Source: Mixophyes australis (taxonomy: Eukaryota > Chordata > Amphibia > Anura > Limnodynastidae). From it: a stretch of DNA of 64,000 bases. The translations under genes were made by a program, and so were the position numbers. Below, in pieces: positions 3,237-61,479 of this stretch. The stretch covers positions 394,068,283-394,132,282 of the forward strand of contig JAVHZZ010000001.1 in NCBI GenBank assembly GCA_036250195.1, given 5' to 3'. Each line of letters starts with the position of its first letter. Positions within the stretch are counted from its first letter, which is position 1. The notes under the pieces are model-generated. The model saw nothing but the letters and a program-made list of their open reading frames with translations, ran no database searches and was not told the DNA's origin.

Positions 3237-3550
3237 AGGTAGGTGGTGTAGGTTTATTTCTTCAATAACACCTACCTCTGAAGTACCTTTAGGTCAGCCA
3301 CATGGTTTTAGTTTCATCTCTTTAACCTCAGGCTTACATGGGTAAAGTGGCACATGAATGTTTATTAGCAAGAAAGTGTGTGTGATGGAAGCACAAGTGT
3401 AGCAATCTACAGTTATCAGTATTGTATAGATGGGGCCAGAATACACAGTAAGTGAGGTGGCGCTTTATTTACATATCACATATTCTAGCACAGTTCACTT
3501 ACTTTAGGCACAAGAGATAACACTTTTGCATAGGGGGTCTGTTACCTGAA
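3237..3550. repeat. 314-bp direct repeat, upstream copy (flank or pseudo-LTR of the PLE)
   Basis: This stretch is identical, without indels, to 6045-6358. It abuts the 5'-truncated PLE coding region at 3551. The two readings are (a) the 3' end of an upstream, more truncated tandem PLE copy (the 'pseudo-LTR' arrangement known for Penelope-like elements), or (b) an unusually long target duplication. No coding content. Confidence 0.85.
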
Positions 3551-4547
3551 TTTTTTGGATATTACTGTATATGTAGAGGGAGGAGTCATACAAACCAAAA
3601 CCTACAAAAAACCCACGGACATCATTGGATATATCCATTATGATAGTAATCATTATCAAAGATGGCTAAACAACATACCCTATGGGCAAATGAAAAGAAT
3701 CAGAAAGAACTGTAGTGATGATAAGGTTTTTAAGGAACAGATTCAAGACCTAAAGAAGGCCTTTGTTGGCAAGGGATATGATGAGAATTTCTTGAGTCAA
3801 GTGGAGAATAAAGTTTTAGAGACTAATAGAGATGAGTTATTCATTCAGAGAGAAAAATCATCAATAGATCACTGCCACAAATATGATTGGGCCTTCATAT
3901 CAGGGTTTAGCAAAGATTTTAAAAATGTTGAAAGGATTTTTGGTAAATATTGGGACATTTTACGAAAAGACAATATAATAGGAAATTCACTTCCAGCAAA
4001 ACCTGTTTTTGTGTATAGAAAAGCCCCCAATTTAAGGGATAAATTAGTAAGGAGTACTCTGCCAGAAGATGTGAGAAAATCTGTGAGAACCATAGGTTTC
4101 CACAGATGTGGGCTATGTATGGCCTGTAAAATTATCAAGACAAATATGAGTAAAATTACCAATTTGGAAGTAAATGGGTACCATATTAAAATTGAGCAGT
4201 TTATAACATGCCACACAAGCAATGTCATCTATATTATGGAATGCAAATGCGGTAAATTTTATGTGGGAAAAACCTCACGTCCCCTGAAAATAAGGGTACG
4301 CGAACACATTTATAATATACGCAAAGGTTTAGAGACCCATTCAGTTTCCAAGCATTTTAAAGATCACCACAAATGCAAACCGGAAGACATAAAATTCTTC
4401 TGCGGTCTACAAGTAGTTGAAGGAAATTGGAAAAATAGAGACGTTGCAGGGATGTTGTCTAGAGCTGAAATGAAGTGGATTTTCCTTTTGAAAACTTTGG
4501 TCCCGAGGGGCCTCAACATAGAATTTGATTTAAAATGTTTTATTTAA
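3551..4547 (+). CDS. Penelope-like element polyprotein, C-terminal part: RT thumb, zinc-like linker and GIY-YIG endonuclease (5'-truncated)
   Basis: A 330-residue open frame with no internal stop (ATG at 3555; the element's frame enters from 3551). Residues 1-95 match the RT thumb of PLEs ('TKTYKKPTD', 'HYQRWLNNIPYGQ', 'IRKNCSDD'). Cysteines in 'CGLCMACK' (about residues 186-193) fit the zinc-like linker. The GIY-YIG nuclease follows: 'NVIYIMECKCGKFYVGKTSR' with the Arg in 'KIRVREH' and a later Glu/His region. In PLEs this nuclease nicks the target to prime reverse transcription. The palm and fingers are absent, so the copy cannot move alone, but this part looks undamaged. The abrupt start at the thumb is a 5' truncation typical of target-primed insertion. 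Confidence 0.88.
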
Positions 4548-6044: not shown

Positions 6045-6358
6045 AGGTAGGTGGTGTAGGTTTATTTCTTCAATAACACCTACCTCTGAAGTACCTTTAG
6101 GTCAGCCACATGGTTTTAGTTTCATCTCTTTAACCTCAGGCTTACATGGGTAAAGTGGCACATGAATGTTTATTAGCAAGAAAGTGTGTGTGATGGAAGC
6201 ACAAGTGTAGCAATCTACAGTTATCAGTATTGTATAGATGGGGCCAGAATACACAGTAAGTGAGGTGGCGCTTTATTTACATATCACATATTCTAGCACA
6301 GTTCACTTACTTTAGGCACAAGAGATAACACTTTTGCATAGGGGGTCTGTTACCTGAA
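6045..6358. repeat. 314-bp direct repeat, downstream copy
   Basis: Base-for-base identical to 3237-3550; the offset is 2,808 throughout. Flanks differ on both sides ('...GTATAAC' before, 'CTCACCTATTC' after). Complete identity implies that the duplication is very recent, or that the copies are kept alike by conversion. Confidence 0.9.
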
Positions 6359-7757: not shown

Positions 7758-8254
7758 TGTCAGGTTAGCTCACAGATAATTGAGTGAGATCCTGCTGTCT
7801 CAATGAGTGTTAACTAAACTTCCCTGGAGGCGCGGAGTCTAACAAAATGGGAAATGTTCACTAGGGATTCCCGCAAGGGAATATGGGCTTCTGCAGCTCC
7901 CACCTTGCGCGCAGCCCTCCAGGAAAGCTCCCAATGTGACAGCTAGAGAACCAGTTACATAGCAGGAAAATGATCCAATTCAGCCATCAAATGGTGGTAA
8001 CAAAGATTGCCATTTTATTGTAAAACATTAATACAAGGGTTCTATGAAGACTTGAGTAATTTGCAGATGATGATCATGAAGACATGCAAGAATAGTAACT
8101 GTCAGCAACATTCATTAATACAAGCTGCATATGCAATAACCAGAGTCTCTATTAATAGTAGAATTGAGGCACAGGAATCAACAAAGTCCAAACATATTCA
8201 GCCACTATTGGCACCTCTTGTCACAGATGATAGAACTGATAACAGTAATCAACA

Positions 8255-8545
8255 ATGCCAGCCAAGTAGATAACAGATGCGGATCATAGCATTCATCACA
8301 GACTGTGGAAACGGTATGCAGAGATTGTGATAGTTCAACATACAGCAGCGATGAACATACGACAGCAATGAATAGCAGCTTACCACGGATTGTGAAACAG
8401 GTAACAGTAGTCAGCGATGCAGGCCGTGCAGGTAACAGGTGTAGATCATAGTGTTTACCACGAGCAGTGGAACAAGTATGCAGAAATCTAGGAAGTCCAA
8501 CATACAGCAGCGATGAACACACAGCAGCGATGAATAGCAGCTTAC
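8255..8545. repeat. 162-bp tandem repeat inside the solo LTR, left part
   Basis: The sequence 'CTTACC(A/C)' starting a unit occurs at 8379 and 8541, and after the nested element at 14068 and 14230: a 162-bp period both times. Units share 'GATTGTG(A/G)AACAGGTAACA' and 'GTAGATCATAG'. Roughly three and a half units exist in total, counting both sides. Confidence 0.75.
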
Positions 8546-9219
8546 TGTTACGAGCCGCGGCGGTGCCCAGCCGCCGCGACCCTCCTACCTGCGTCCCGGC
8601 CGTCGCTATGGCGAGCGGGACGTCACTTCCGCCCATGACCCGGCCGTTGCCGGGGCAACGGATGGACGCTTCAGCGCTGCGTCCCGGCGGTAAGAAGCCG
8701 GGCGCATGCGCTCAACATATTACACCTGTGGGCTAATTAATCTAGGTAGGGGGCTGAGGATTATCAGAGCCAGGCTCTGATTGGCTGGGTCTACTACTTA
8801 AGGCAATGAGGTCTGCTACCTCATTGCCGGTTATAGCTTCTGTGCTCCAGTCTGCTGACCTGCTTGTCCCTGTTCCTGTATCCTGATACTGCTACTGATT
8901 TCCCGTGTATGACCCCTGGCTTTGAATTGGACTTCGCTTGTGTTTCCTGTGACCCTGATCTTCGGCTTGTTTACCGTTTCTGCTATCTGCCTGTGACCCC
9001 TGACCTCAGCTTGTTTACCGATACTGTTGTCTGCTGCCGGCCCTTGACCTCTGCGTGGACCTCACTCCGCTTGCCTGGGTTCTCCCCAGCCGGTACACAC
9101 TTCACGACCCTCTGTCAGTCTGCGGCCCAGTCTGTCCCCACCATCAGGGGCTCCAGTGAACACCTGACTGGCAGAGTAGATTCCGGGTTGTGTTGTGCCG
9201 GCTGGAGGGGTTCCTAACA
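8546..9219 (+). mobile_element. 5' LTR of sushi-like chromovirus A (674 bp)
   Basis: Starts TGTTACGAG and ends TCCTAACA, so the outermost bases form an inverted TGTTA/TAACA. The 3' LTR (13394-14067) is the same length and differs at about a dozen positions by eye, mostly transitions. TSD CTTAC is at 8541-8545. A TATA-like TACTTAA is at 8796-8802, followed by an 11-bp perfect hairpin (8803-8829) that overlaps the presumed transcription start. GC-rich at its 5' end. Confidence 0.92.
8796..8836 (+). promoter_or_regulatory. TATA-like box, hairpin and presumed mRNA 5' end of element A
   Basis: TACTTAA (8796-8802) precedes GGCAATGAGGT/ACCTCATTGCC (8803-8813 with 8819-8829). GCCGGTTATA (8827-8836) lies about 30 bp downstream of the TATA-like box and is the exact complement of 9221-9230. 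This fits a self-priming mRNA 5' end. The start site itself is inferred. Confidence 0.55.
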
Positions 9220-9231
9220 TTATAACCGGCC
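9220..9231 (+). promoter_or_regulatory. Primer-binding site of element A, self-complementary type
   Basis: Directly after the LTR comes T plus TATAACCGGC (9221-9230). It does not begin with TGG, as a tRNA primer site would. Instead it is complementary over 10 bases to 8827-8836 in the LTR. The Tf1/sushi group is known for priming from the 5' end of its own mRNA. Confidence 0.65.
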
Positions 9232-9247
9232 ACACTAAGACGAGGTT

Positions 9248-10081
9248 GTGATGGATGGAAGCGGATCCACACCGTCTCCAGCACAGGCCTTAGCAGCCCA
9301 TGTTGAGTCCTTGTATCAGATGATCCAGGGATTGGCTGAGCGTCTGTCTGTTCAAGAAGAAGCCGCAAAAACTTCTCAACCCACTCCCAGTTCCTCCTGT
9401 GAACCGAAGATGAATTTGCCGGATCGCTTTTCTGGAAATAGATCTCTGTTCCGGAATTTCAGGGAAAGTTGCAAACTCTATTTCCGGTTGAGACCCCGTT
9501 CCTCCGGTTCAGAGCAGCAAAGAGTCGGGATCATCATTTCCCTCCTACAAGGTGACCCCCAGTCCTGGGCCTTCTCTTTGCCACAGACCAGTCCTGCCAT
9601 GCAGTCCGTAGACTCTTTCTTTGAGGCATTGGGTCTACTGTATGATGACCCGGATCGAGTTGCCTCCACGGAAGCTCATCTACGGGCCTTGAAACAAGGC
9701 CGGCGGTCGGCAGAAGAATACTGCGCTGAATTCCGTAGATGGTCATCTGATAGTGGATGGAACGATCCCGCCTTACGTAGTCAGTTCCATCTCGGCCTGG
9801 TGCAATACCCATCTCCTAGCTCTCTGGAGGATCTGATGCACCTCTCCATTAAAATTGACAGGAGGTATAAAGAGCGGAGAACTGAAAAGGAGACATCATC
9901 ACCTCCAACCGCCTTTGTTCCTGTTTCCACGGATGGTGAGGAACCGATGCAATTAGGAGCATATCGCCTTTCCCCTGAAGAAAGAGACAGGAGACGATCA
10001 CAAGGCCTATGTTTATATTGTGGCACAAGAGGCCATTTCTCCCGTTCCTGCCCAAATAAGCCGGGAAACGAGCATGCCTAG
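9248..10081 (+). CDS. Gag of sushi-like chromovirus A
   Basis: A 277-residue protein with an uninterrupted frame. It holds a Gln-rich N-terminus with likely coiled coil (residues 14-40), a Ty3-type capsid region ('LPDRFSGNRSLFRNF', 'LLQGDPQSWAF', 'RSAEEYCAEFRRW'), and one CCHC zinc knuckle near the C-terminus, 'CLYCGTRGHFSRSC' (C-X2-C-X4-H-X4-C). Gag packages the element RNA into particles. The ATG at 9248 is the first in-frame start after the primer site. The C-terminus overlaps the pol frame by about 20 bp, with a slippery heptamer just before its stop. It resembles sushi-ichi-type Gag, the ancestor family of mammalian PEG10/RTL genes. Confidence 0.92.
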   Translation: MMDGSGSTPSPAQALAAHVESLYQMIQGLAERLSVQEEAAKTSQPTPSSSCEPKMNLPDRFSGNRSLFRNFRESCKLYFRLRPRSSGSEQQRVGIIISLLQGDPQSWAFSLPQTSPAMQSVDSFFEALGLLYDDPDRVASTEAHLRALKQGRRSAEEYCAEFRRWSSDSGWNDPALRSQFHLGLVQYPSPSSLEDLMHLSIKIDRRYKERRTEKETSSPPTAFVPVSTDGEEPMQLGAYRLSPEERDRRRSQGLCLYCGTRGHFSRSCPNKPGNEHA

Positions 10082-13000
10082 GGAACAAGGGGAAAGTTCA
10101 CCTAGGTCTGCAAATTGTCTCCCCAAAAAATGCCGTATTGATCCCTGCACAGCTCACGTTCAATACCCGTTCCATGGACCTGGCAGCCTTCATTGACAGG
10201 GGAGCTGCGGGCAACTTCCTTGACATCGGGTTCGCCCGCGCTGCTGAAATTCCAATGGTAAGACTCAAGTCTGCTGTTACGGTTTGTGGTTTAGATGGAG
10301 CTCCGTTACCTGGTGGCAAGATTTCCTGGGAGACCCCGCCACTACAGTTAAATATCGGAGCCCTCCATTCAGAATCAATAACCTTTTTCCTTATTGATTG
10401 CACATCGGTGCCCTTGATCCTGGGTCACCCATGGCTTTCCCGGCATAACTCTGTAGTGGATTGGATAAAAGGAGAAATTATCCACTGGAGTTCTTATTGT
10501 GAACAGTCCTGTTTGTCACTACCGTTGCGGTTGGTTCAGTCTATTCCGGAGCAACTTCCCTCACAATACCACGACTTCTGGGACGTGTTTTCTAAGAGAG
10601 CGGCGGATACCCTACCACCTCACCGTGACTTCGACTGCGCTATCGAGCTCATACCTGGTTCCAAGTTGCCTAAGGGACGCCTGTATTCCCTCTCAGCTCC
10701 CGAGACCAAGTCCATGCAGGAGTATATTGAGGAGAATTTGGAAAAGGGCTTCATCGGGCCGTCTAAATCTCCAGTAGAAGCTAAGTGTTTTTTTGTATCT
10801 AAAAAAGACGGAGGGCTAAGACCCTGTATTGACTACAGAGGATTGAACCTCATCACAGTTAAAAACACCTATCCACTTCCTCTCATCTCTGTATTGTTCG
10901 ATCAACTAAGAGGTGCTACAGTCTTCACCAAAATTGATCTCCGGGATGCATATAACCTCATACGTATTAGAGCAGGTGATGAGTGGAAGACGGCATTTAA
11001 TACGCTCTCCGGCCATTATGAATATTTGGTCATGCCGTTTGGTCTGAGTAACACCCCTGCAGTGTTTCAGGATCTAATTAACGAAGTACTACGTGAGTTT
11101 CTGGGACATTTCATTGTGGTTTACTTGGACGACATCCTCATATATTCGGACTCGTTGTCAGTACACCAGGGTCATGTCAGACAAGTGTTACAAAAGTTGA
11201 GAAAACATCACCTCTATGCTAAACTCGAAAAATGTGAGTTTGAGGTTCCGAAGGTATCCTTTCTTGGTTATATTATCTCCTCGGAAGGATTCTCTATGGA
11301 CCCAACCAAGGTCCAAGCAATCCTAGACTGGGTACAACCGAACAACCTCAAATCGGTCCAGAGATTCCTGGGATTCGCCAATTACTACAGGAGGTTTATT
11401 GGCGGTTTTGCGGATATCGTGGCTCCCATCGTCACTTTGACCCGTAAAGGAGGTGATCCAGCTGTTTGGTCACAACAGGCGAGAACTGCATTCGAAACCC
11501 TGAAGAAAGCTTTTGTGTCTGCACAGGTCCTCAGACATCCAGATCCTAAGGTACCGTTTATTCTTGAGGTAGATGCCTCTGACGTCGGTGCTGGGGCCAT
11601 CTTGTCACAAAAAGATCCTCAGACCCACCGCTTACATCCATGTGCCTTTTTTCCCCGTCAGTTTTCCTCAGCAGAAACCAACTATGACGTGGGAAACCGA
11701 GAATTGCTGGCAATTAAATGGGCCTTTGAAGAATGGCGACACTGGTTGGAAGGCGCTGCACACCAGATCTCCGTTATAACGGATCATAAGAATCTGCAAT
11801 ATATACAGTCAGCCAAACGTCTGAACCCCCGACAGGCTCGTTGGTCGCTGTTCTTCATCCGGTTCAACTTTATTATCACCTATCGTCCTGGTTCTAAAAA
11901 TATTCAAGCGGACACTCTGTCCAGAAGTTTCCTGGCACATCATGCTCCGGTCACTAGCCCAGAACCTATTGTCCCTGTGTCTATGATTCATGCTGGGTTA
12001 ACCCAAGACCTGAGCTGTACCTTACAGAGGTTTCAGAGATTAGCCCCTGATAATACTCCAGCAGGATGTTTGTTTGTCCCAGTTCATCTGAGGAGGGCAG
12101 TTCTTGCTGAAGCACACGATAGTCAAACTGCCGGACATCCGGGAGTCTTTAAGACAATAGAAATCCTTTCCCGTACTGTATGGTGGCCATCTTTATCTGC
12201 TGACGTCAAGAGTCACGTCCTGTCATGTGATGTTTGTGCCAGAAACAAAGTCTCCAGGACCCGTCCAGTAGGTCAGTTAGTTCCTTTGGCCATTCCTGCA
12301 AAACCATGGACGCACTTGTCCATGGACTTTATAGTTGATCTACCACCTTCTGCAGGACACACTACCATTTGGGTCGTGGTAGAACGGTTCAGCAAAATGT
12401 CACATTTCGTTCCACTAACCAAACTGCCTACTGCTCGGGATTTGGCCGTCTTATTCATTCAACATATTTTCCGGCTCCATGGACTTCCTACTGACATCGT
12501 CTCCGATTGGGGTTCTCAGTTCATAGCCCAATTCTGGAAATCCTTCTGTACTCTCCTTGGAATCAAGATCAGTTTATCATCCGCATACCACCCTCAGTCA
12601 AATGGGCAGACTGAAAGGGTTAACCAGTCACTGGAACAGTTCCTCCGATGTTACACTTCAGAGTTCCATGACAACTGGTCCTCTTTGCTGCCCTGGGCAG
12701 AGTTTGCATACAATAACTCAGCTCACTCATCTACTCAAACTTCCCCGTTCTTCTGTAACTTCGGTTTCCATCCCAGGTCTAACTCACTATATTCTCTCAA
12801 ATCTGCTGGTATCCCGGAGATTCGTTCCACAGCTGCTGATCTGAGAGTAATTTGGAGGAAAGTTCAGTCCTCCTTGAGAAAATCCTCATTGTCTGCTAAA
12901 AAAAATTCGGACCGCCATCGTACCACCTGTTCATTTAAAGTGGGCCAGAAAGTGTGGCTTTCAACTCGGAATGTTAGGCTCAGACAGCCTTGTAAAAAAC

Positions 13001-13584
13001 TAGGGCCTAAATTTATTGGTCCGTTCATGATCACCAAGCAGATTAATCCGGTAGCTTTTAGGTTGAAGATTCCTGGCTCATTAAAGATTCCGAACACGTT
13101 TCATTGTTCATTACTTAAACCAGTACTATACCCGAGTCAATCCCAGCCGACAGGGCTTTCTGTGGGAAATAGGAACACAGCACAAAAATTTGTGGTCCAG
13201 AAAGTTCTTGACTCCAGAAGAGTGCAGGGGCAGGTACACTTCTTAGTACAATGGAAAAAACGTGGATTAGAGGAACGATCCTGGGTTCCGCGAAGACGAC
13301 TATGTGCGCCTAAACAGTTGAAGGATTTCTTCAAAAAATTTCCAAAGAAACCTGGATGTCGGGGTCCCTCGACCCCTCCTCAAGGGGGGGTACTGTTACG
13401 AGCCGCGGCGGTGCCCAGCCGCCACGACCCTCCTACCTGCGTCCCGGCCATCGCTATGGCGACCGGGACGTCACTTCCGCCCATGACCCGGGCGTTGCCG
13501 GGGCAACGGATGGACGCTTCAGCGCTACGTCCCGGCGATGAGAAGCCGGGCGCATGCGCTCAACATATTACACCTGTGGGCTAA
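10060..13584 (+). CDS. Pol of sushi-like chromovirus A: protease, RT, RNase H, integrase, chromodomain
   Basis: One open frame, entered by -1 frameshift. Counting from 10138 as residue 1: protease 'FIDRGAAGNFLD' (18-29), where family members have DSG, so the catalytic triad is altered. RT follows with '[16 protein letters not shown]' (about 222) and YLDD (329-332). RNase H has 'EVDASDVGAGAILSQ' and 'ITDHKNLQYI'. Integrase has HHCC (about 660-705), catalytic Asp in 'MDFIVDLP', Asp in 'SDWGSQF' (DRG is usual) and Glu in 'GQTERVNQ'. A C-terminal chromodomain is recognisable ('KVLDSRRVQGQVHFLVQW'); it steers insertion to marked chromatin in chromoviruses. The frame runs through the polypurine tract into the 3' LTR; the stop at 13582-13584 is therefore LTR-encoded. 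No stop or frameshift is seen. Confidence 0.93.
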   Translation, partial: AGKRACLGNKGKVHLGLQIVSPKNAVLIPAQLTFNTRSMDLAAFIDRGAAGNFLDIGFARAAEIPMVRLKSAVTVCGLDGAPLPGGKISWETPPLQLNIGALHSESITFFLIDCTSVPLILGHPWLSRHNSVVDWIKGEIIHWSSYCEQSCLSLPLRLVQSIPEQLPSQYHDFWDVFSKRAADTLPPHRDFDCAIELIPGSKLPKGRLYSLSAPETKSMQEYIEENLEKGFIGPSKSPVEAKCFFVSKKDGGLRPCIDYRGLNLITVKNTYPLPLISVLFDQLRGATVFTKIDLRDAYNLIRIRAGDEWKTAFNTLSGHYEYLVMPFGLSNTPAVFQDLINEVLREFLGHFIVVYLDDILIYSDSLSVHQGHVRQVLQKLRKHHLYAKLEKCEFEVPKVSFLGYIISSEGFSMDPTKVQAILDWVQPNNLKSVQRFLGFANYYRRFIGGFADIVAPIVTLTRKGGDPAVWSQQARTAFETLKKAFVSAQVLRHPDPKVPFILEVDASDVGAGAILSQKDPQTHRLHPCAFFPRQFSSAETNYDVGNRELLAIKWAFEEWRHWLEGAAHQISVITDHKNLQYIQSAKRLNPRQARWSLFFIRFNFIITYRPGSKNIQADTLSRSFLAHHAPVTSPEPIVPVSMIHAGLTQDLSCTLQRFQRLAPDNTPAGCLFVPVHLRRAVLAEAHDSQTAGHPGVFKTIEILSRTVWWPSLSADVKSHVLSCDVCARNKVSRTRPVGQLVPLAIPAKPWTHLSMDFIVDLPPSAGHTTIWVVVERFSKMSHFVPLTKLPTARDLAVLFIQHIFRLHGLPTDIVSDWGSQFIAQFWKSFCTLLGIKISLSSAYHPQSNGQTERVNQSLEQFLRCYTSEFHDNWSSLLPWAEFAYNNSAHSSTQTSPFFCNFGFHPRSNSLYSLKSAGIPEIRSTAADLRVIWRKVQSSLRKSSLSAKKNSDRHRTTCSFKVGQKVWLSTRNVRLRQPCKKLGPKFIGPFMITKQINPVAFRLKIPGSLKIPNTFHCSLLKPVLYPSQSQPTGLSVGNRNTAQKFVVQKVLDSRRVQGQVHFLVQWKKRGLEERSWVPRRRLCAPKQLKDFFKKFPKKPGCRGPSTPPQGGVLLRAAAVPSRHDPPTCVPAIAMATGTSLPPMTRALPGQRMDASALRPGDEKPGACAQHITPVG
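10063..10106 (+). promoter_or_regulatory. -1 ribosomal frameshift signal between gag and pol
   Basis: GGGAAAC at 10063-10069 sits in gag phase as G GGA AAC. A 7-nt spacer (10070-10076) follows, then a stem: CCTAGGGAAC (10077-10086) pairs with GTTC (10096-10099) and CCTAGG (10101-10106), with one bulged A and a 9-nt loop. The pol frame is open from 10060 and the gag stop is at 10079-10081. GGGAAAC is the heptamer used by PEG10 and by SRV-1/MPMV gag-pro, so the geometry is textbook. Confidence 0.85.
13378..13393 (+). promoter_or_regulatory. Polypurine tract of element A
   Basis: CAAGGGGGGG then TAC sits directly before the 3' LTR start at 13394. It is the expected plus-strand primer position. 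Confidence 0.75.
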
Positions 13585-14067
13585 TTAATCTAGGTAGGGG
13601 GCTGAGGATTATCAGAGCCAGGCTCTGATTGGCTGGGTCTACTACTTAAGGCAATGAGGTCTGCTACCTCATTGCCGGTTATAGCTTCTGTGCTCCAGTC
13701 TGCTGACCTGCTTGTCCCTGTTCCTGTATCCTGATACTGCTACTGATTTCCTGTGTATGACCCCTGGCTTTGAATTGGACTTCGTTTGTGTTTCCTGTGA
13801 CCCTGATCTTCGGCTTGTTTACTGTTTCTGCTATCTGCCTGTGACCCCTGACCTCAGCTTGTTTACCGATACTGTTGTCTGCTGCCGGCCCTTGACCTCT
13901 GCGTGGACCTCACTCCGCTTGCCTGGGTTCTCCCCAGCCGGTACACACTTTACGACCCTCTGTCAGTCTGTGGCCCAGTCTGTCCCCACCATCAGGGGCT
14001 CCAGTGAACACCTGACTGGCAGAGTAGATTCCGGGTTGTGTTGTGCCGGCTGGAGGGGTTCCTAACA
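13394..14067 (+). mobile_element. 3' LTR of sushi-like chromovirus A (674 bp)
   Basis: Same ends and length as the 5' LTR. The target copy CTTAC is at 14068-14072. About 12 substitutions against the 5' LTR, no indels, so the insertion is young. Confidence 0.92.
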
Positions 14068-14320
14068 CTTACCATGGATTGTGAAACAGGTAACAGCAGT
14101 CAGCGATGCAGGCCGTGCAGGTAACAGGTGTAGATCATAGCGTTTACCACGGGCAGTGGAACAAGTATGCAGAGATCGAGGAAGTCCAACATATAGCAGT
14201 GATAAACACACAGCAATGATGAATAGCAGCTTACCACGGATTGTGGAACAGGTAACAGGTGTAGATCATAGCGTTTACCACGAGTAGCAGATAAACTCAG
14301 TTTCCACGGGTATGCATCCC
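14068..14320. repeat. 162-bp tandem repeat inside the solo LTR, right part
   Basis: Continues the array broken by element A. A full unit runs from 14068 to 14229, then a partial one in which the middle is missing. Confidence 0.7.
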
Positions 14321-20699: not shown

Positions 20700-22318
20700 T
20701 GTCACTCACCGGACTGTTAGTGCGTCTAATTTTAGACATGGGTCTCTCTCTCTCTTGCCAGCACCTGTCTTGCGCCGCGGCCGTCCGCCATCTTGACCAA
20801 AGGATTGCGCATGTGCAAGACCCACGGACTGTTTAAACCTTGTTCCTAGTCTCATTGGATAATTAATCACCTCTCACTACTTAAGGCACCTGTTGCCCTA
20901 TTACCTTTGCCTGTTCTTGGTCCTCATTCCATTGAGACACCGAGGAGTTTCCTGTTCCTGCTTGTGCTATCTGTTTGCTGTGGACGCTACCTGCACCTGG
21001 ACAAGTTCTCTCTCCACATCAAGTGGTAATACCTGCCAGCCGCAGACCGCTCCTTGCTACCTTGTATCGTATCTGCACCTGGACAAGTCTTCTCTCCACA
21101 TCAGTGGTAATACCTGCCAGCCGCAGACCGCTCCATGCTAACTTGTATCGTATCTGCACCCGGACAAGTCTTCTCTCCACATCAGTGGTACCTGCCAGCC
21201 GCAGACCGCTCCATGTTACATTGTATCTTACCTGCACCTGGACAAGTCTTCTCTCCACATCAGTGGTAATACCTGCCAGCCGCAGATCGCTCCATGCTAC
21301 ATTGTATCTTACCTGCACCTGGACAAGTCTTCTCTCCACATCAGTGGTAATACCTGCCAGCCGCAGATCGCTCCATGCTACATTGTATCTTACCTGCACC
21401 TGGACAAGGGTTCTCTCCACATCAGTGGTAATACCTGCCAGCCGCAGATCGCTCCATGCTACATTGTATCTTACCTGTGCCTGGACAAGTCTTCTCTCCA
21501 CATCAGTGGTAATACCTGCCAGCCGCAGATCGCTCCATGCTACATTGTATCTTACCTGCACCTGGACAAGGCTTCTCTCCACATCAGTGGTAATACCTGC
21601 CAGCCGCAGATCGCTCCATGCTACATTGTATCTTACCTGCACCTGGACAAGTCTTCTCTCCACATCAGTGGTAATACCTGCCAGCCGCAGACCGCTCCAT
21701 GCTACATTGTATTTTACCTGTACCTGGACAAGTCTTCTCTCCACATCAGTGGTAATATTGCCAGCCGCAGATCACTTCAGGCTACCTTGTACTCTACCTA
21801 TCTCTGGACAAGTCTTTACTTCATGCCAGCGGTAACACCTGTCAGGAGCAGCTTATTCTACTACTTTGCATGTTACCTATTTTTGGGACTAAAGTCTATA
21901 GTGTCTCTGGAGTATAGCTGCGAGTCACTGACTCTCCTATTACATTGTTGATTGGCTGTTTGCATAGACTTTCTCCAGTTGTCAAGTATTTGCCTGCTGT
22001 ATGCTACCTGCGTGCTAAGCACTTTGGAACTCTCTCCTCCTTTTATTATTACTCATCATTCTGCCGTGCTACCATTGTTTCCACTGTTCAGAGACTATGC
22101 ATATCTATCATTGACATTCCTTCTTCCATTCAGTTTGTATAGTTCCGTATATTCACCACACTCCCCAGAGGACCGCGACCTGCACAGTGGCAGCCGCTAA
22201 AACCATACTTCCTTGCGGGAGTTCCTGGAGAAGACCAGCCACTGTGTTAGACTCCACGCCTCTGGTGAGTAAAGTTACACCTGGTGAATTCTGGGTAAAA
22301 CTCCTAGTGCCCGTGACA
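20700..22318 (+). mobile_element. Solo LTR (1.62 kb) carrying an 81-bp minisatellite
   Basis: Starts TGTCACTC and ends CCGTGACA. CTGCC is at 20695-20699 and 22319-22323. 'CTACTTAAGGCAC' (near 20877) resembles the TATA-like region of chromovirus A, and the two LTRs share a pyrimidine-rich 'CCTGTTCCTG' style downstream. A Ty3/gypsy origin is therefore likely. No gag or pol remains. Confidence 0.85.
20985..21835. repeat. 81-bp minisatellite, about ten units, within the solo LTR
   Basis: Units read 'TACCTGCACCTGGACAAG' ... 'ATCAGTGGTAATACCTGCC' ... 'TTGTATCT'. The period is 81 bp in most units, a multiple of three. Frames on both strands therefore stay open for 241-286 codons (20975-21835 plus; 21019-21744 minus). 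These ORFs are repeat artefacts rather than genes. Confidence 0.9.
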
Positions 22319-28020: not shown

Positions 28021-28394
28021 ATCACTATCAGGGGCGGATCAGGAACTTAAAGTTAAAGCTATGCCCTCTCCCCCCCCCCCCCCACACACTTTTCCATCTG
28101 TGGGACAGAGACCTAAATCGGGACAGTCCTGCAGTTGGGAGGTATGAATATTGGTTCACCCCAGGGCCGGACTGGCCATCTGGCACTTCTGGCATTTACC
28201 AGAAGGGCCGATGGCTGTATGGGCCGGTCCGGTCCCTGCGCTTCCAGTCCTTTTTTTTTTTTAAACTTCCGCGCGGCCGCGCGATGTGCCGTCCGTCTGT
28301 TGAGCGCGCAGGTTGTTGAGGTGAGTTGGTGTGTCCGGGGATAGTGACAGGTACTGCAGGGGAGGGGGGAATGAGTAAAAATAACTGCAGGGAG

Positions 28395-29700
28395 ACTGTA
28401 TGGGAGAAGTGATTGAAAATGTCTGCAGGGGGAAGGGGGGGTGTGAGGGACATGTCTTCAGTGGGAAGGGGGGGTGTGAGGGACAATGTCTGCAGGGAGA
28501 AGGGCTGGTGTGAGGGACAATGTCTGCAGGGGGAAGGGGGGGTGTGAGGGACAATGTCTGCAGGGAGAAGGGCTGGTGTGAGGGACAATGTCTGCAGTGG
28601 GAAGGGGGGGTGTGAGGGACAATGTCTGCAGGGAGAAGGGCTGGTGTGAGGGACAATGTCTGCAGGGGGAAGGGGGGGTGTGAGGGACAATGTCTGCAGG
28701 GGGAGGGGGGGTGTGAGGGACAATGTCTGCAGGGGGAAGGGGGGGTGTGAGCGACAATGTCTGCAGGGGGAAGGGGGGGGGGGTGTGAGGGACAATGTCT
28801 GCAGGGGGAAGGGGGGTGTGAGGGACAATGTCTGCAGGGGGAAGGGGGGTGTGAGGGACAATGTCTGCAGCGGGAAGGGGGGGTGTGAGGGACAATGTCT
28901 GCAGGGGGAAGGGGGGGTGTGAGCGACAATGTCTGCAGGGGGAAGGGGGGGTGTGAGGGACAATGTCTGCAGGGGGAAGGGGGGTGTGAGGGACAATGTC
29001 TGCAGGGGGAAGGGGGGTGTGAGGGACAATGTCTGCAGCGGGAAGGGGGGGGTGTGAGGGACAATGTCTGCAGGGGGAGGTGGGGTGTGAGGGACAATGT
29101 CTGCAGGGGGAAGGGGGGAGTGTGAGGGACAATGTCTGCAGGGGGAAGGGGGGGTGTGAGCGACAATGTCTGCAGGGGGAAGGGGGGGTGTGAGCGACAA
29201 TGTCTGCAGGGGGAAGGGGGGTGTGAGGGACAATGTCTGCAGGGGGAAGGGGGGTGTGAGGGACAATGTCTGCAGCGGGAAGGGGGGGGTGTGAGGGACA
29301 ATGTCTGCAAGGGGAAGGGGGTGTGAGGGACAATGTCTGCAGGGGGAAGGGGGGTGTGAGGGACAATGTCTGCAGGGGGAAGGGGGGTGTGAGGGACAAT
29401 GTCTGCAGGGGGAAGGGGGGTGTGAGGGACAATGTCTGCAGGGGGAAGGGGGGTGTGAGGGACAATGTCTGCAGCGGGAAGGGGGGTGTGAGGGACAATG
29501 TCTGCAGGGGGAAGGGGGTGTCTGAGGGACAATGTCTGCAAGGGGAAGGGGGGGTGAAGGACAATGTCTGCATGGGGAAGGGGGGGTGAGTGACAATGTC
29601 TGCAGGGAGATTGGGGGGGGTGAGTGACAATGTCTGCAGGGGGATTGGGGGGGGTTGAGTGACAATGTCTGCAGGGGGAATTGGGGGTGAAAATGTCTGC
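28395..29700. repeat. 33-34 bp G-rich minisatellite, nearly 40 units
   Basis: Units read 'GGGGGAAGGGGGGTGTGAG' + 'GGACAATGTCTGCA'. Length varies with the G run, so frames slip between units. The G-rich strand is the plus strand, with runs of 5-9 G every 33 bp or so. Long minus-strand ORFs (up to 504 codons, 28196-29710) are just translations of the C-rich complement (Pro/Ser/His/Cys/Arg). Confidence 0.95.
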
Positions 29701-29749
29701 ATGGGGGCAATGGCTGTAGGAGGGGGAAAATAAAAAATTGCCAATGTGT

Positions 29750-29935
29750 GTGGGGGTACAGTATATGACTGTAATGTATGTGGAGCGACAGTATATGACT
29801 GTAATGTGTGTGGGGGGACAGTATATGACTGTAATGTGTGTGGGGGACAGTATATGACTGTAATGTGTGTGGGGGACAGTATATGACTATAATGTGTGTG
29901 GGGGACAGTATATGACTATAATGTGTGCTATTAAT
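29750..29935. repeat. 28-29 bp tandem repeat, six units
   Basis: 'GTATATGACTGTAATGTGTG' + 'TGGGGGACA', immediately following the G-rich minisatellite in the same hAT element. Confidence 0.85.
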
Positions 29936-30640: not shown

Positions 30641-32099
30641 GGAGCCCCTCTGTCTTAAGTGCCTAGGGCCCCCAGAGCCTTAATCCAGCTCTGATTAGCA
30701 GGAGGGAGCGGATAGCTACTCCCAGTTCCTGGATAGGACACAGCCTGCAGAGAAAGCCGAGGAGCTCTAAGTCTCATGAGATTTATTAATCTTGTGAGAC
30801 AAAGAGCTTCCCTGCTCACTCTACAGGAAGTTCCCAATCTGATGGATGTCAGCAGCATCAGAAGCATAGATAAGTGCAGTGGGCTGGGGGTGTTGTAATG
30901 TGTTTCTGGGGTGGGGTGTGGTATGATAGGGAGGGCCTGATAAATGTAATGTTTTATTATAATGTATGTATCAATGCCCCACGTTGACCATGCCCCCAAC
31001 ATAATGTGGGTACGCCCCTTCTGGCGCCGCTGCTGTGCAGCGGCACACAGTTTTGTCCTGCTCATCAACAGGGATGGGCCTGTATGCTTGAAATGCCAGG
31101 GCTGATTTTTAGTCCCAGTCCGGCCCTGGTTCACCCACATAATGGCTGCCTCCTCTATGAATAAATGATGGGTACACATTGACTAATACATAGAAGGTAG
31201 GGCAAAAAGAGCAACTAAATTTAGCAGAAGCAAACAGAACATAATCACAAATCACAATATACATATTCATGCATATTTTATAGCATAGTGCAGATGAACA
31301 GCCAATATAGAAAAATACAGATCGCAGACTGTCCTGCTCTCTTCTACCTATTCTTGTCACTTTTCCTACCTGTGGTTGATGCTGACTTTTGCTCAGTTGC
31401 CGCTTGTCTGGATCCTGGAATTTTGGGGGCTCTATTTGGAAAAAAAATTGGGTACATGAAAGTTAGAAAACTCCAACAAGATCTAGTGTTAAATCAAAAG
31501 CATCCATGTTTAATATTTAGGCCTCCCTCTAGCCCCAACATTAAAATAACAGTATTCACATTTGATAAATATACCTATTTCCTTCCCTCCAAACAACCCC
31601 AGCAATAAAATAATAGCATTTACGTTTAATATAACCATTTCCCACAAACCATCCCCGGCATTAAATAATTCATATTCACATTTAATAAATAGCCCTTCTT
31701 CCCAAACTCAGCCCCACATTCAATTATTAGCCCCAAACGACCCCAGCATTAAATTAAAGGTCCCATCCCCTCATCTTAAATTAATAGGCCTCACTAATAA
31801 ATTAAATAGCCACATTATCACCCCACAAATAAATTAATAGCACCCAACATTAAATAATGAGCTCCAACCCACAGTCCACAATTAAATTAATAGTCTACCT
31901 CCCACCCAAATTACAGTGCATACACTCCTTACCTTGGCATTAATAGCATTTCCATTTAATAAATATACCTATTTCCAGCAACCACCACAGCCATTAAATA
32001 ACTAAATTTACATTTAATAATAGACCTCATTCTCTTCAAACTGTGAAACACATTAAATTAAATTGCCCCATCATCACCCCACACTCACATTTTATCACC

Positions 32100-32625
32100 A
32101 TAAGCCCCCCCGCCCTCAGCCACGCATATAATTGCCACAAGCCCCTCCTGTCCTCAGCCACACATATAATTACTATATAAGCCCCCCTGCCCTCAGCCAC
32201 ACATATAATTACTATATAAGCCCCCCTGCCCTCAGCCACGCATATAATTAGTATATAAGCCCCCCTGCCCTCAGCCACGCATATAATTACTATATAAGCC
32301 CCCCTGCCCTCAGACACACATATACTTATTATAAATGCCCCCCTGTCCTCAGACACACATATAATTACTATGTAAACCCCCCTGCTCTCAGCCAAGCACA
32401 TAATTACTATATAAGCCCCCCTGCCTTCAGCCACACACATAATTAATATATAAGCCGCCCCTGCCCTCAGCCATGCACACAATTATTATATAAGCCTCCC
32501 TGCCCTCAGCCACACATATAATTACTATGTAAGCCCCCCTGCCTTCAGCCACACACATAATTACTATATAAGCCCCCCTGCCCTCAGTCACACGCATAAT
32601 CATTATATAAGCCCCCCTGCCATAA
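32100..32625. repeat. 39-bp minisatellite, about 13 units, in the outer hAT
   Basis: Units read 'CATATAATTACTATATAAGC' + 'CCCCCTGCCCTCAGCCACA'. The 39-bp period keeps a minus-strand frame open (13-residue repeats, 32036-32482); it is not a gene. Confidence 0.92.
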
Positions 32626-33053
32626 CACTAACCTTGTTCCAGCTGCGTTTGAGACACTACACTGTACACAAGGGACAGCACCTGTAACGTGGTGCGCGTC
32701 CCATGTGACATAGGGGGAGGGAGGGACGGATGATCTGCGGCAACTACAAGGTAGGTGGCTGGTTTTGGGGAAGGGGCCAGCCACAAACTACCACACTGTC
32801 CCCTGAAAGAGGGGGGGCCTAGGGCACGTGTCCTCAGTGACCCTTCCCCCCCAATCCTGCTCTGTGTTAGGCTGGCTGGACGAAAAGGATCGCTGGGTAA
32901 TTAAAAAAAAAAATTACACACACAAAAACAATTGTCATGAAAAAAATAAAAATATATTAGGCGGCCTATGGCCGGCCTCATTAGAACACCGGCCTACCAG
33001 GAATATTCCCGGTAAGGCATATGGTCAATCCGTCGCTGATCACTATTCACAAA

Positions 33054-46506: not shown

Positions 46507-47111
46507 CACAGAGGATTAATGATCAGAATGATATTGTGTGTATAATGTTAATAGACCAGCTTAAACCACATTTTCAGCGGGAAGATACATATGCCGCTGT
46601 TGGAGAGTTGACCCCCACCCTTGGAGGGCATTGTTTGAACCGAACTATGACCTGCATTATACTGGACTGTCCTGAATGCTGAACCAATGGAAACTTGCCA
46701 TGACATCACTCCTGTTTTTTATGTATCACAAACTGTATATAAACCAAGCACTGGGGCCATCATACAGTCTACTTGACCACAGACTTCAGGATTGAATGAC
46801 TATATGCTGGATCCAGAACGCTTGCGTATGTATCGGCTTTACTTTATTTATTGAATTTTTATTTGTTGCATCTTGTTATTAAATCTCTTTCTGCGTTGGA
46901 ACCACACAAATCGAAGTGGACAATTTTCATTGATAGCAACTAGACCGGGGGTAGGTAACCTGTGGCTCTACAGGTATTGTGAAACTACAAGTCCCAGCAT
47001 GCCTTTCCAGTAGATAACCAGCAGATAGGTGGCAAGGCATGCTGGGATTTGTAGTTTCACAACACCTGGAGAGCCGCAGGTTGCCTACCCCTGGACTAGA
47101 CGAACATAACA
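46507..47111 (+). mobile_element. 5' LTR of the endogenous retrovirus (recognisable part), with a MITE inside
   Basis: Homologous to 61034-61479 from 'ACAGAGGATTAATGATC' to 'GAACATAACA'. It has a CCAAT box (46684-46688), TATATAAA (46736-46743) and ATTAAA (about 46879). The first about 256 bp of U3 found in the 3' LTR is absent or replaced. A hAT MITE lies at 46946-47093. Confidence 0.85.
46946..47093. mobile_element. hAT-type palindromic MITE inside the 5' LTR
   Basis: TIRs CCGGGGGTAGGTAACCTG and CAGGTTGCCTACCCCTG; the arms share 'TTGTGAAACTACAAGTCCCA'. TSD AACTAGAC/GACTAGAC (46938-46945, 47094-47101). The 3' LTR has the empty site 'GCGACTAGACGAAC', confirming the insertion. Confidence 0.92.
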
Positions 47112-54916: not shown

Positions 54917-54988
54917 TATCAGGATTCGAACCCAGGGCTTCTGCCTTTGTGGACTGCTGCTCTACTGACTGAGCTATTCTGGCTACTG
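54917..54988 (-). other. tRNA-like sequence at the LTR start (antisense)
   Basis: On the minus strand: A box TAGCTCAGTCAG (54965-54976) and B box GGTTCGAATCC (54922-54932), 32 bases apart, with a D-arm GCTC...GAGC. The anticodon arm does not pair well. The 3' LTR keeps both boxes (59626-59636 region and 59583-59593). It is a tRNA-derived or tRNA-mimicking element end, not a functional tRNA gene. Confidence 0.6.
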
Positions 54989-55077
54989 GACTGTTCCTTG
55001 CCTTTATCCTGTGTTCCAGATCAGTTCTAGTGATCTCCTGATGTTTCAGCATGCCTTAGCTACACCCCTTGACTTCC

Positions 55078-55125
55078 TATAAAAGCCTGGCCAGTTCCTG
55101 GCTAGTTCTCCAGTGCCTGATTATT
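55078..55125 (+). promoter_or_regulatory. TATA box and presumed mRNA 5' end of chromovirus B
   Basis: TATAAAA (55078-55084), then GCCTGATTATT at 55115-55125, the exact complement of 55363-55373 just after the LTR. It is the same layout as in element A. Confidence 0.6.
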
Positions 55126-55361
55126 GTGCTCCTTGCCTGTGATCTAGCTCCTGTTCCTGTTGCTTTTCTTACCTGCAGACATCTTCTACTCGTGTATCGA
55201 CCTCGACTTGCCCTCAACTTTGCTTCTTCCCTAACCATTGGACCTCATTGCCTCTCTGTGTACCATACCTGGCTACGTTTGACTATTCTTATATTCTAAT
55301 CTCCTGTTGGCCAGCCTTCCTCCCTGCCACTGGGCTCCTATCCAGTCTCCGGACCATGACA

Positions 55362-55373
55362 GAATAATCAGGC
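55362..55373 (+). promoter_or_regulatory. Primer-binding site of chromovirus B, self-complementary type
   Basis: G then AATAATCAGGC, complementary over 11 bases to 55115-55125. No TGG start. Confidence 0.65.
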
Positions 55374-55399
55374 CCAAAAATGGGAGTAGCTGCGCTAAA

Positions 55400-56600
55400 T
55401 ACTCTAAAAAAAAACAAATAAAGGAATTGCAAGAGTTTGCCTGCGTTTCTCAGAACAAGATCAGAGAACTAGAAACCCTTGTTAAAGCTCAGCAGGAACA
55501 AATAGCTCAATTGCAGAAAGAATTAAAAGATTATGCCGCCACTGCTGCACAAATTTCGCGTCCACCATTGCCTACAAAATTCAGTGGCGATCGTCGCTTA
55601 TACAGAGGCTTCTTAAACCAGTGCAGCATAGATTTTCAGATGCAACCTACACAGTTAAAAAATGATAAGATGAAGATTTTTTTCATAATCAATGTCCTGA
55701 AAGGGGAAGCCCTAGGCTGGGTCTCTCTATACATTGAGCAAGACTGCTATTCTGGAAGATCTGGAATCTTTTACGTCTACTATGGGCCAAGTCTTTGATG
55801 ATCCTAATCAATGTGCCACAGCTGAAGCTTAACTCCATAGACTGCGACAAGGAGGATGCTCTGTGGGTTAGTATACCGCTGAATTCCGATGCTTGGTTGC
55901 AGACACCACATGGAATGATTCTACAAAAAAAGACAGTTCTGTTGCGGCCTTTCTAAGAAAAGGATGAACTGGCCAGAGTATACACTCCTAATGATCTGGA
56001 TGATTTTATCCAACTGTGCATTCGGATTGATCAAAGGCTAAGTGAGAGGAAAAATGAAAGATTAAGAGCGTTTGGTGTGGACAGTAATTTGCATCAATTT
56101 AATAGAGCTACAAAGTTCAAATCCACACCATCAGACAATCCTAACGTCTCACCCGAACCAATGCAAATTGATGAAATTAGGAAACCATTCAGTTTTAATG
56201 AGAAACAGAGATGTCAGGATGAGAATCTTTGTTTATATTGTGGTGATCAAGGACATTACTCCTTCGCTTGCCCAAATAAGATTTGCCAGACCATTGCTAT
56301 GACTGACTTTAAGCAAATGGATTCCAAGGAGTCTAGTCAATCCTTTTCCATCTCACAATCACTAAATCCTTTGGCTCATGAAAAAGGAGATCCTCTGCCG
56401 TCACAATCACATTTTGTTAACCCAATAACACTTTCATCCGGGTCTCTTGTAATTTGCAGTCTGGCTATGCTTGACTTGGGTGCTGGTGGCAATTTCATGG
56501 ATATTGCACAGGAAAACTGTATTGAATCAAAGAGTAAACAAGCACCTGTAAATTTGGACTGTAGATGGATCCCCTTTGTCTTCTGGGCCAGTAACTCATG
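55400..56600 (+). pseudogene. Gag of chromovirus B, decayed
   Basis: Coiled-coil-like 'ELETLVKAQQEQIAQLQKEL' (about 55469-55528), then 'LPTKFSGDRRLYRGFLNQC' and 'LKGEALGWV' (capsid), a frameshift near 55750, and a zinc knuckle 'CLYCGDQGHYSFAC' (about 56231-56272). The layout matches Gag of element A. Stops and frameshifts in the capsid. Confidence 0.8.
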
Positions 56601-59600: not shown

Positions 59601-59640
59601 TCTGCCTCTGTGGACTGCCACTATACTGACTGAGCTATTC
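56450..59640 (+). pseudogene. Pol of chromovirus B (protease to chromodomain), decayed
   Basis: Protease: 'AMLDLGAGGNFMD' (about 56466-56504, DLG for DSG) and 'FPIILGIPRLSTHNP'. RT: 57093-57398, with '[12 protein letters not shown]' (YLDD). RNase H: 'VKVDASDSTVGAILSQ' and 'VLTDHRNLEFL'. Integrase: 'HDSKPAGHLGVYRTQELL' (zinc part), 'MDFIVVLPPPKG', 'DRGVQFT', 'HPQSNGQTERTN' then a stop. Chromodomain: 'VEEIMCSRIHRNRLQYLVK' (about 59371-59430). At least six frame breaks. Domain order equals element A. Confidence 0.85.
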
Positions 59641-60017
59641 TGGGTCCTCGACAGTTCCTTGCCTTTATCCTGTGGGCCAGATCAGTTCTAGTGATCTTCT
59701 CATGTTCCAGCATGCCTTAGCTCCACCCCTTGACTTCCTATAAAAGCCTGGCTAGTTCCTTTCTCCAGTGCCTGATTATTGTGCTCCTTGCCTGTGATTT
59801 AGCTCTTGTTTCTGTTGCTTTTCTTACCTGCAGACATATTCTACTCGTGTATCGACCTCGACTTGCCCTCGACTTAGCTTCTTCCCTAACCATTGGACCT
59901 AATTGCCTCTCTGTGTACCATGCCTGGCTACGTTTGACTATTCTTATATTCTAATCTCCTGTTGGCCAGGATTCCTCCCTGCCACCGGGCTCCTATTCAG
60001 TCTCTGGAACCGTGACA
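59578..60017 (+). mobile_element. 3' LTR of chromovirus B (440 bp)
   Basis: Starts TGTCTGGATT after 'GGAAGGAGGGGAGTAC' (polypurine tract, 59562-59577) and ends CCGTGACA. Confidence 0.88.
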
Positions 60018-60777: not shown

Positions 60778-61479
60778 TGTGTAAGTTGAATAATTAACAT
60801 TAATTTCTAAATAGTTGACCTTAATAAAGTTACAACACACAGTCTTTTATAATCAAATGTAATAGATTTAATAGTTTAATAGTTTAATATCATAATGTTA
60901 AAACCACTTTGTTGATATCTAAGGTTCAGGATATAGGAAGCATATTGTTTAGTGTCATTTTAATCCATATTTTACCACCAGACATCCGCTATAATCAGCT
61001 AAGCGATCGTACCTTTCATATGCAAGCTATGGATGACAGAGGATTAATGATCAGAATGATATTGTGTGTGTAATGTTAATAGACCAGTTTAAACCAGCTT
61101 TTCAGTGGCAAGACACGTATGCAGCTGTTGGAGAGTTGACCCCCACCCTTGGAGGGCATTGTTTGAACCGACGTATGACCTGCATTATACTGGACTGTCC
61201 TGGAATCTGAATCAATGGAAACTTGCCGTGAAATCACTACTGTTTTTTATACATCACAAACTGTATATAAACCAAGCACTGGGACCATCATACAGTCTAC
61301 TTGACCACAGACTGATTGAATGACTGTATGCTGGATCCAGAGTGCTTGCGTATGTATCGGCTGTACTTTATTTATTGAATTTTTATTTGTTGCATCTTGC
61401 TATTAAATCTCTTTGTGCGTTGGAACCACACCAATCGCAGAGGACAATTTTCATTGATAGCGACTAGACGAACATAACA
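60778..61479 (+). mobile_element. 3' LTR of the endogenous retrovirus (702 bp)
   Basis: TGTGTAAG to CATAACA. TATATAAA near 61266 and ATTAAA near 61404. The downstream 446 bp matches 46507-47111 without its MITE. Confidence 0.85.

What the first reader, a model, noticed from the sequence alone, without database searches (positions are those of the whole stretch)
8796..9231. Self-priming layout in chromovirus A, with an extra hairpin at the mRNA start
The ten bases after the 5' LTR (9221-9230) exactly complement 8827-8836, about 30 bp downstream of the TATA-like box, where transcription should begin. No TGG tRNA site is present. A perfect 11-bp hairpin (8803-8829) overlaps the same point, so part of the primer sequence could be held in a second structure. 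Self-priming is established for Tf1 and was proposed for its vertebrate relatives; the hairpin coupling is my inference.
Basis: partly seen in the sequence, partly recalled or inferred. Interest (0 to 1): 0.75.

Follow-up and report, generated by a model that had tools for sequence, protein, structure and literature searches.

The report
Self-priming retrotransposon with conserved promoter-edge hairpin
A jumping gene in a vertebrate genome appears to start copying itself with the tip of its own RNA, a known trick, and just before that tip lies a hairpin whose two arms have changed in step across related copies, so its pairing seems to matter; what it does is not yet known.

Summary
Element A is a Ty3/gypsy chromovirus (LTRs 8546-9219, 13394-14067). 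PBS 9221-9230 exactly complements 8826-8835; an 11-bp hairpin lies at 8802-8828. Self-priming holds: three other families here (B, C, D) have different primers with matching PBSs, the primer starting 30-31 nt after a TATA-like box (37 in one B copy), and one D copy carries a compensatory primer/PBS change. This is the known Tf1/sushi mechanism.

If transcription starts at the primer, the mRNA 5' end holds only three bases of the hairpin; the whole hairpin exists only in promoter DNA and at the U3/R boundary near the mRNA's 3' end.

Yet its pairing is maintained. GGC-N21-GCCGGTTATA occurs 7,276 times (reversed control 9). Over 27 variants, 6 of 11 pairs change on both sides; covariation is 0.277 against 0.120 shuffled and at most 0.105 slid. 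A distant LTR family keeps it with different arms.

Preferred, unproven mechanism: the hairpin hides the 3' primer copy from the PBS. Rivals: promoter DNA palindrome, arm homogenisation, 3'-end signal. Eight literature searches listed no report of it.

The parts
8546..9219 (+). 5' LTR of element A (TGTTACG...CCTAACA), preceded by target duplication CTTAC 8541-8545
   Evidence: 98.1% identical to the 3' LTR; ends and duplication read directly
8795..8801 (+). TATA-like box TACTTAA (TATTTAA in several subfamilies); first T is 31 nt before the primer's first base
8802..8828 (+). 11-bp hairpin GGCAATGAGGT/ACCTCATTGCC, loop CTGCT; last three bases are also the first three of the primer
   Evidence: covariation
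8826..8835 (+). self-primer GCCGGTTATA, predicted 5' end of the mRNA (start of R)
   Evidence: exact complement of 9221-9230; 31 nt after TATA-like box; start site inferred, not measured
9221..9230 (+). primer-binding site TATAACCGGC, one base (T9220) after the 5' LTR
9251..10081 (+). gag reading frame
   Evidence: PF03732 Retrotrans_gag, E 1.9e-11
10063..10069 (+). GGGAAAC, candidate -1 frameshift site where gag and pol frames overlap
10138..13584 (+). pol reading frame: RT, RNase H, integrase, Tf2-type SH3, chromodomain
13394..14067 (+). 3' LTR of element A; holds the hairpin (13650-13676) and primer copy (13674-13683) that would lie near the mRNA's 3' end
55115..55125 (+). self-primer GCCTGATTATT of degenerate chromovirus B (5' LTR 54917-55361)
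   Evidence: exact complement of 55363-55373
55363..55373 (+). primer-binding site AATAATCAGGC of element B, one base after its 5' LTR

Best explanation
Element A is a Tf1/sushi-type chromovirus that primes reverse transcription with the first ten bases of its own mRNA (8826-8835), which anneal to the PBS just after the 5' LTR; RT/RNase H then cuts the primer free and extends it into U5. Shown here: the complementarity, the TATA spacing, and the exchange of primer and PBS sequences together across families. Inferred: the start site and the priming itself. The 11-bp inverted repeat between the TATA box and the start site is held for its pairing. [quoted passage not shown] In RNA it can exist complete only at the U3/R boundary of the 3' LTR, where its 3' arm takes in the first three bases of the second copy of the primer sequence. 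The mechanism I think most likely (about 0.3 on its own) is a guard: the hairpin holds GCC of the 3' primer copy, so that this copy, identical to the true primer, does not occupy the PBS. The confidence given is for self-priming plus pairing held by selection, not for the guard.
For: Self-priming: A GCCGGTTATA/TATAACCGGC; B GCCTGATTATT/AATAATCAGGC; C GCTGGTTCTT/AAGAACCAGC in 29 of 30 gag-search loci and in L126; D GCACGAGTAT/ATACTCGTGC in L119, L120, L125. L124, a D relative, has GCTCGAGTAT/ATACTCGAGC, a compensatory change in one copy. First T of the TATA-like box to first primer base: A 31, B 31 (37 in the window's 5' copy), C 30, D 31, L127 31.

Hairpin pairing: 7,276 sites genome-wide against 9 for the reversed pattern (the pattern fixes the outer three pairs). 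In 27 distinct variants 94.6% of cells pair (slid controls at most 55.9%), 6 of 11 pairs change on both sides (shuffled mean 3.9, 4 of 500 reach it), 25 cells change on both sides (shuffled 8.4, 0 of 500), covariation 0.277 against shuffled 0.120 (sd 0.016, 0 of 500) and at most 0.105 when slid. L127, a distant LTR family, keeps TATTTAA, a perfect 11-bp hairpin and GCCGGTTATA with different arms.

Guard: modelled binding to the PBS piece is -15.5 kcal/mol for the 5' end and -8.0 for the 3' copy with its hairpin.
Against: No start site, 3' end or priming was measured. The guard rests on one in-silico comparison, and its altered-arm control (-10.3) was itself structured, so it isolates the hairpin poorly. 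L040 lacks the 5' arm yet keeps exact primer and PBS. B and C show no stem of comparable strength and D only a 6+3 bp one that abuts the primer (fold z -0.22, -1.30 and -0.87), so a guard is not general. In pairs 4-10 the departures are 9 A.C, 5 G.T and 4 others, so they do not point to the sense RNA. One of five covariation measures is weak: further pair types 10 against 8.3, reached by 46 of 500 shuffles. Related sequences can exceed shuffles without structure. The leader's predicted minimum does not contain the primer/PBS duplex. Family A itself shows no compensatory primer/PBS change (0 of 62).
Confidence: 0.6

Rival explanations
1. The inverted repeat works as DNA: a palindrome in the core promoter, between TATA box and start site, that a dimeric protein binds or that eases strand opening.
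For: It fills the space from the TATA-like box to the start site in A and in L127. The lack of a G.T over A.C preference in pairs 4-10 (5 against 9) is what a double-stranded constraint would give. D has a shorter inverted repeat in the same interval.
Against: Arm sequences change on both sides at 6 of 11 pairs with pairing kept, unusual for a sequence-specific binding site. B and C, with nearly the same TATA spacing, lack a comparable stem. Pair 11 is most often U.G (13 of 27 variants).
Confidence: 0.3
2. The paired changes are produced by mutation, not selection: reverse transcriptase or a repair polymerase switches template within the imperfect palindrome and makes one arm a copy of the other.
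For: Arm homogenisation in quasi-palindromes is known from other systems (recalled, no call). The arms sit beside the expected first strand-transfer region. Mismatches without strand preference fit.
Against: It does not explain why thousands of copies and a distant LTR family keep an 11-bp stem at one fixed place between TATA and primer. Intermediates with a single G.U or A.C exist (L092, L053), as stepwise change would give.
Confidence: 0.15
3. Transcription starts upstream, near 8802, so the hairpin does lie at the mRNA 5' end and competes with the primer.
For: The hairpin overlaps three primer bases and folds well.
Against: From the first T of the TATA-like box to the primer is 30-31 nt in four families and L127, the usual distance to a start site (general knowledge); a start at 8802 would lie only 7 nt after that T. 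The published model places the primer at the mRNA 5' end (PMC10085805, passages).
Confidence: 0.05
4. The hairpin is a 3'-end formation or polyadenylation element of the 3' LTR.
For: LTR A has none of 12 poly(A) hexamers tested, whereas a published sushi LTR model has an AATAAA motif (PMC3601003, passages). The hairpin is in a suitable place for the 3' RNA.
Against: No direct evidence; other subfamilies and families were not checked for hexamers.
Confidence: 0.15

Closest known systems
Tf1 of Schizosaccharomyces pombe and Tf1/sushi-group chromoviruses (Tf2, Tj1, sushi-ichi)
   Same: PBS directly after the 5' LTR is complementary to the predicted first bases of the mRNA; no tRNA-type TGG; chromodomain integrase; Tf2-type SH3 domain; gag and pol in a -1 relation, as the G3 paper says of most members outside fission yeasts (PMC10085805 passages)
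   Different: Has an 11-bp inverted repeat between TATA box and start site, with covarying arms; my searches listed no description of this. The two side duplexes of the Tf1 'pretzel' structure are only partly supported here.
TAR-type R-region hairpins of lentiviruses
   Same: Hairpin near the U3/R edge, beside the region of first strand transfer (start of an HIV abstract seen in a listing; rest recalled)
   Different: TAR lies inside R and is present at both RNA ends (recalled); here the hairpin is almost wholly in U3, so only the 3' end would have it, if the start site is right.

Membership tests
[quoted passage not shown]
   Sequence complement exact in copies of A, B, C, D. That the primer is the true mRNA 5' end is inferred from TATA spacing.
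Tf1/sushi group of chromoviruses | Ty3/gypsy pol order with chromodomain after integrase | tested here: met
   RT, RNase H, H2C2, rve, SH3_Tf2-1 and Chromo in this order in one frame
Tf1/sushi group of chromoviruses | Reverse transcriptase groups with the sushi clade in a tree | not tested
   No tree built. In the 120 listed relatives the named ones are vertebrate, mostly fish, one Xenopus tropicalis (69% identity); one is named Transposon Tf2-9 polyprotein.
Tf1/sushi group of chromoviruses | -1 frameshift between gag and pol (most members outside fission yeasts) | tested here: met
   G GGA AAC in gag frame at 10063, pol in the -1 frame and open across it; that frameshifting occurs is inferred
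Tf1/sushi group of chromoviruses | Three-duplex 'pretzel' structure of the leader | tested here: inconclusive
   The central duplex and a second helix inside it appear when a 5'-end piece and a PBS piece are co-folded. The leader's overall minimum lacks the primer/PBS duplex. The TGTG/CACA candidate beside the PBS is not kept in all subfamilies (by eye).
Tf1/sushi group of chromoviruses | RNase H cleavage that frees the primer | not testable with these tools
   Needs biochemistry

The most novel reading that the evidence does not exclude
Self-priming elements of this layout carry two identical copies of the primer sequence in each RNA, one at the 5' end and one in the 3' R region. This lineage evolved a pairing-selected hairpin at the U3/R edge that masks the 3' copy, so that only the true 5' end reaches the PBS: a cis-acting guard of self-primed reverse transcription.
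Probability: 0.25. Interest if true: 0.7.

Novelty: new variant of a known kind. Interest (0 to 1): 0.5.

Why it matters
Self-priming has been shown for Tf1 in fission yeast and inferred for vertebrate relatives. Four families in one vertebrate genome whose primer and PBS changed together make the vertebrate case strong. The covarying hairpin beside the primer is a new cis element to test. It raises a simple question for every self-priming element: how does the RNA avoid using the second copy of its own primer sequence?

Tried and rejected
Rejected: tRNA priming (no TGG in the 20 bases after the LTR). Chance complement (four families, near-fixed TATA spacing). Hairpin at the mRNA 5' end (see rivals). 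A known RNA family: Rfam over 8500-9300 gave only one lncRNA hit far below its cut-off, E 0.32. Folding the whole leader gave no support for the primer/PBS duplex. Counts of G.T against A.C did not decide between RNA and DNA. Diversity along the LTR is not used as evidence: those 30 copies were chosen by similarity to this very stretch. One search left minus-strand loci unturned and was redone.

Led nowhere: a genome-wide count of PBS sites (AACATTATAACCGGC) and a pattern that leaves out the two commonest hairpin types did not complete, so the share of hairpin-less LTRs is unknown. PMC1369541, PMC109269 and PMC1563812 are not held. Butler et al. 2001 on vertebrate Tf1/sushi elements was not looked up; I saw it only in other papers' reference lists.

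Corrections: my notebook says 28 of 30 for family C; one search shows 29 of 30. Of the 24 strings one was typed twice; its shuffle test is therefore not cited. One search uses the 23 distinct strings, picked out by eye from the 100 listed, plus 4.

Full report
What is there. The window lies in an unnamed 3.13-Gb genome; the named relatives of the RT among the 120 listed are vertebrate, mostly fish, one Xenopus tropicalis, so the host is probably a vertebrate. Element A runs from 8546 to 14067 between CTTAC duplications, with LTRs 98.1% identical. Its frames are gag (PF03732) and pol with RT, RNase H, integrase, Tf2-type SH3 and chromodomain, in a -1 relation across GGGAAAC at 10063.

Observation. 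TATAACCGGC at 9221-9230 is the exact complement of GCCGGTTATA at 8826-8835. The hairpin is 8802-8828. On the + strand of the window the primer sequence occurs only in the two LTRs. Perfect 11-bp stems with loops of 3-8 occur at 7 places, two of them the LTRs.

Self-priming. A second, degenerate chromovirus B in the same window (LTRs 54917-55361 and 59578-60017) has a different, 11-base primer/PBS pair. A gag-family search brought 30 loci, of which 29 show family C with yet another pair and one (L059) none; L126 is C again. Relatives of B's RT gave family D. Of the nine loci fetched from that list (L117-L125): three have GCACGAGTAT/ATACTCGTGC exact (L119, L120, L125). One, L124, has the compensated pair GCTCGAGTAT/ATACTCGAGC. 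Two have one side changed (L122, L123). L117 is B with one primer base changed. L118 keeps the B PBS but its primer was not located in the piece. In L121 neither was located. The primer begins 30 or 31 nt after the first T of a TATA-like box in A, B, C, D and L127 (the window's 5' copy of B has 37). For family A, 85 loci were examined (five of them, L031-L035, surround the RT match and do not reach the LTR); the primer was located in 67 and the PBS also in 62: 51 of 62 exact pairs, 11 of 62 with one side changed, 0 with both. I read the 11 as decay. Family A alone therefore gives no compensatory case; the evidence is between families and in the single copy L124.

Hairpin. Of the 67 family-A copies, 56 have no mismatch in the 11 pairs (G.U allowed), 8 have one, 2 have two, and L040 has seven, its 5' arm being gone. 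This sample leans towards the window's own type because 30 loci came from a search with this stretch and the rest from its RT. The genome-wide pattern GGC-N21-GCCGGTTATA is less biased: 7,276 sites, 9 for the reversed control. It fixes the outer three pairs and leaves eight free; only the first 100 places are listed, all on one contig, and neighbouring sites can be the two LTRs of one element. I took the 23 distinct strings found by eye and added 4. Over the 27 variants 94.6% of cells pair (shuffled 85.8), 6 of 11 pairs change on both sides (shuffled 3.9; 4 of 500 reach it), further pair types are 10 (shuffled 8.3; 46 of 500), and the covariation score is 0.277 against 0.120 (sd 0.016, 0 of 500) and at most 0.105 for slid partners. 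Because the variants are related, the shuffle count is not a probability; the slid controls keep relatedness and still fall far below. L127 shows the same arrangement in an LTR whose R-U5 is only distantly alignable (score 57 against a maximum of 35 in 200 shuffles), with arms GGCAGGGAAGG/CCTTCCCTGCC. Its PBS is unknown: the 521-base piece did not reach it, and what looks like another repeat interrupts the LTR (by eye).

Where the hairpin can act. [quoted passage not shown] The complete hairpin is in promoter DNA and, if the RNA ends beyond it, near the 3' end of the mRNA (13650-13676). An RNA of this layout holds the primer sequence twice. In a simple co-folding model the free 5' end binds the PBS piece with -15.5 kcal/mol and the 3' copy behind its hairpin with -8.0; a control with a scrambled arm gave -10.3 but folded on its own. 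That suits a guard but does not prove it. D has a 6+3 bp repeat ending at the base before the primer, and B and C have no stem of comparable strength, so the guard would be a feature of the A lineage.

Rivals. A DNA palindrome is about equally likely in my view: in pairs 4-10 the departures are 9 A.C, 5 G.T and 4 others; pair 11 is most often U.G (13 of 27). Template-switch homogenisation of the arms could mimic covariation. A role in 3'-end formation is open because LTR A has none of 12 poly(A) hexamers.

Known background. Self-priming by a three-duplex leader is established for Tf1 and described as common to the Tf1/sushi group (PMC10085805, passages; PMC6317226, passages; PMC4600332, passages; PMC3601003, passages). 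I saw only passages of these. My eight answered paper searches listed no paper that, by title or start of abstract, describes a hairpin at this place, and the one for amphibian self-priming elements found none. The library lacks most subscription papers, and the key vertebrate paper of 2001 was not read.

Verdict. Observation confirmed; self-priming well supported and of a known kind; hairpin coupling at the mRNA 5' end not supported; the hairpin itself is a maintained cis element, not described in what I could search, whose role is open.

Noticed in passing
54917-60017: Degenerate second chromovirus (B) with its own self-primer/PBS pair. It lies between two 92% identical repeats at 46508-46945 and 61036-61469, so it may be nested in an older element.
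   Followed up: partly
8546-9219: LTR A contains none of 12 common poly(A) hexamers.
   Followed up: partly
3237-3550 and 6045-6358: Two 100% identical 314-base repeats 2.8 kb apart flank a 330-codon frame (3555-4547): possibly a very young short LTR element.
   Followed up: no
8217-8545 and 14068-14258: Element A appears to sit in a tandem array with a unit of about 162 bases.
   Followed up: no
28354-29927, 20949-21845, 32061-32667: Tandem arrays with periods of about 34, 81 and 39 bases; the first is open in three frames of the - strand, so its long ORFs are probably not genes.
   Followed up: no
L040: Family A copy that lost the 5' hairpin arm but keeps exact primer and PBS.
   Followed up: partly
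G000: The RT query had 46,990 first-look candidates (150 scored); many listed copies share one score and open frames of 1200 residues, which points to recent amplification of a family near A.
   Followed up: no
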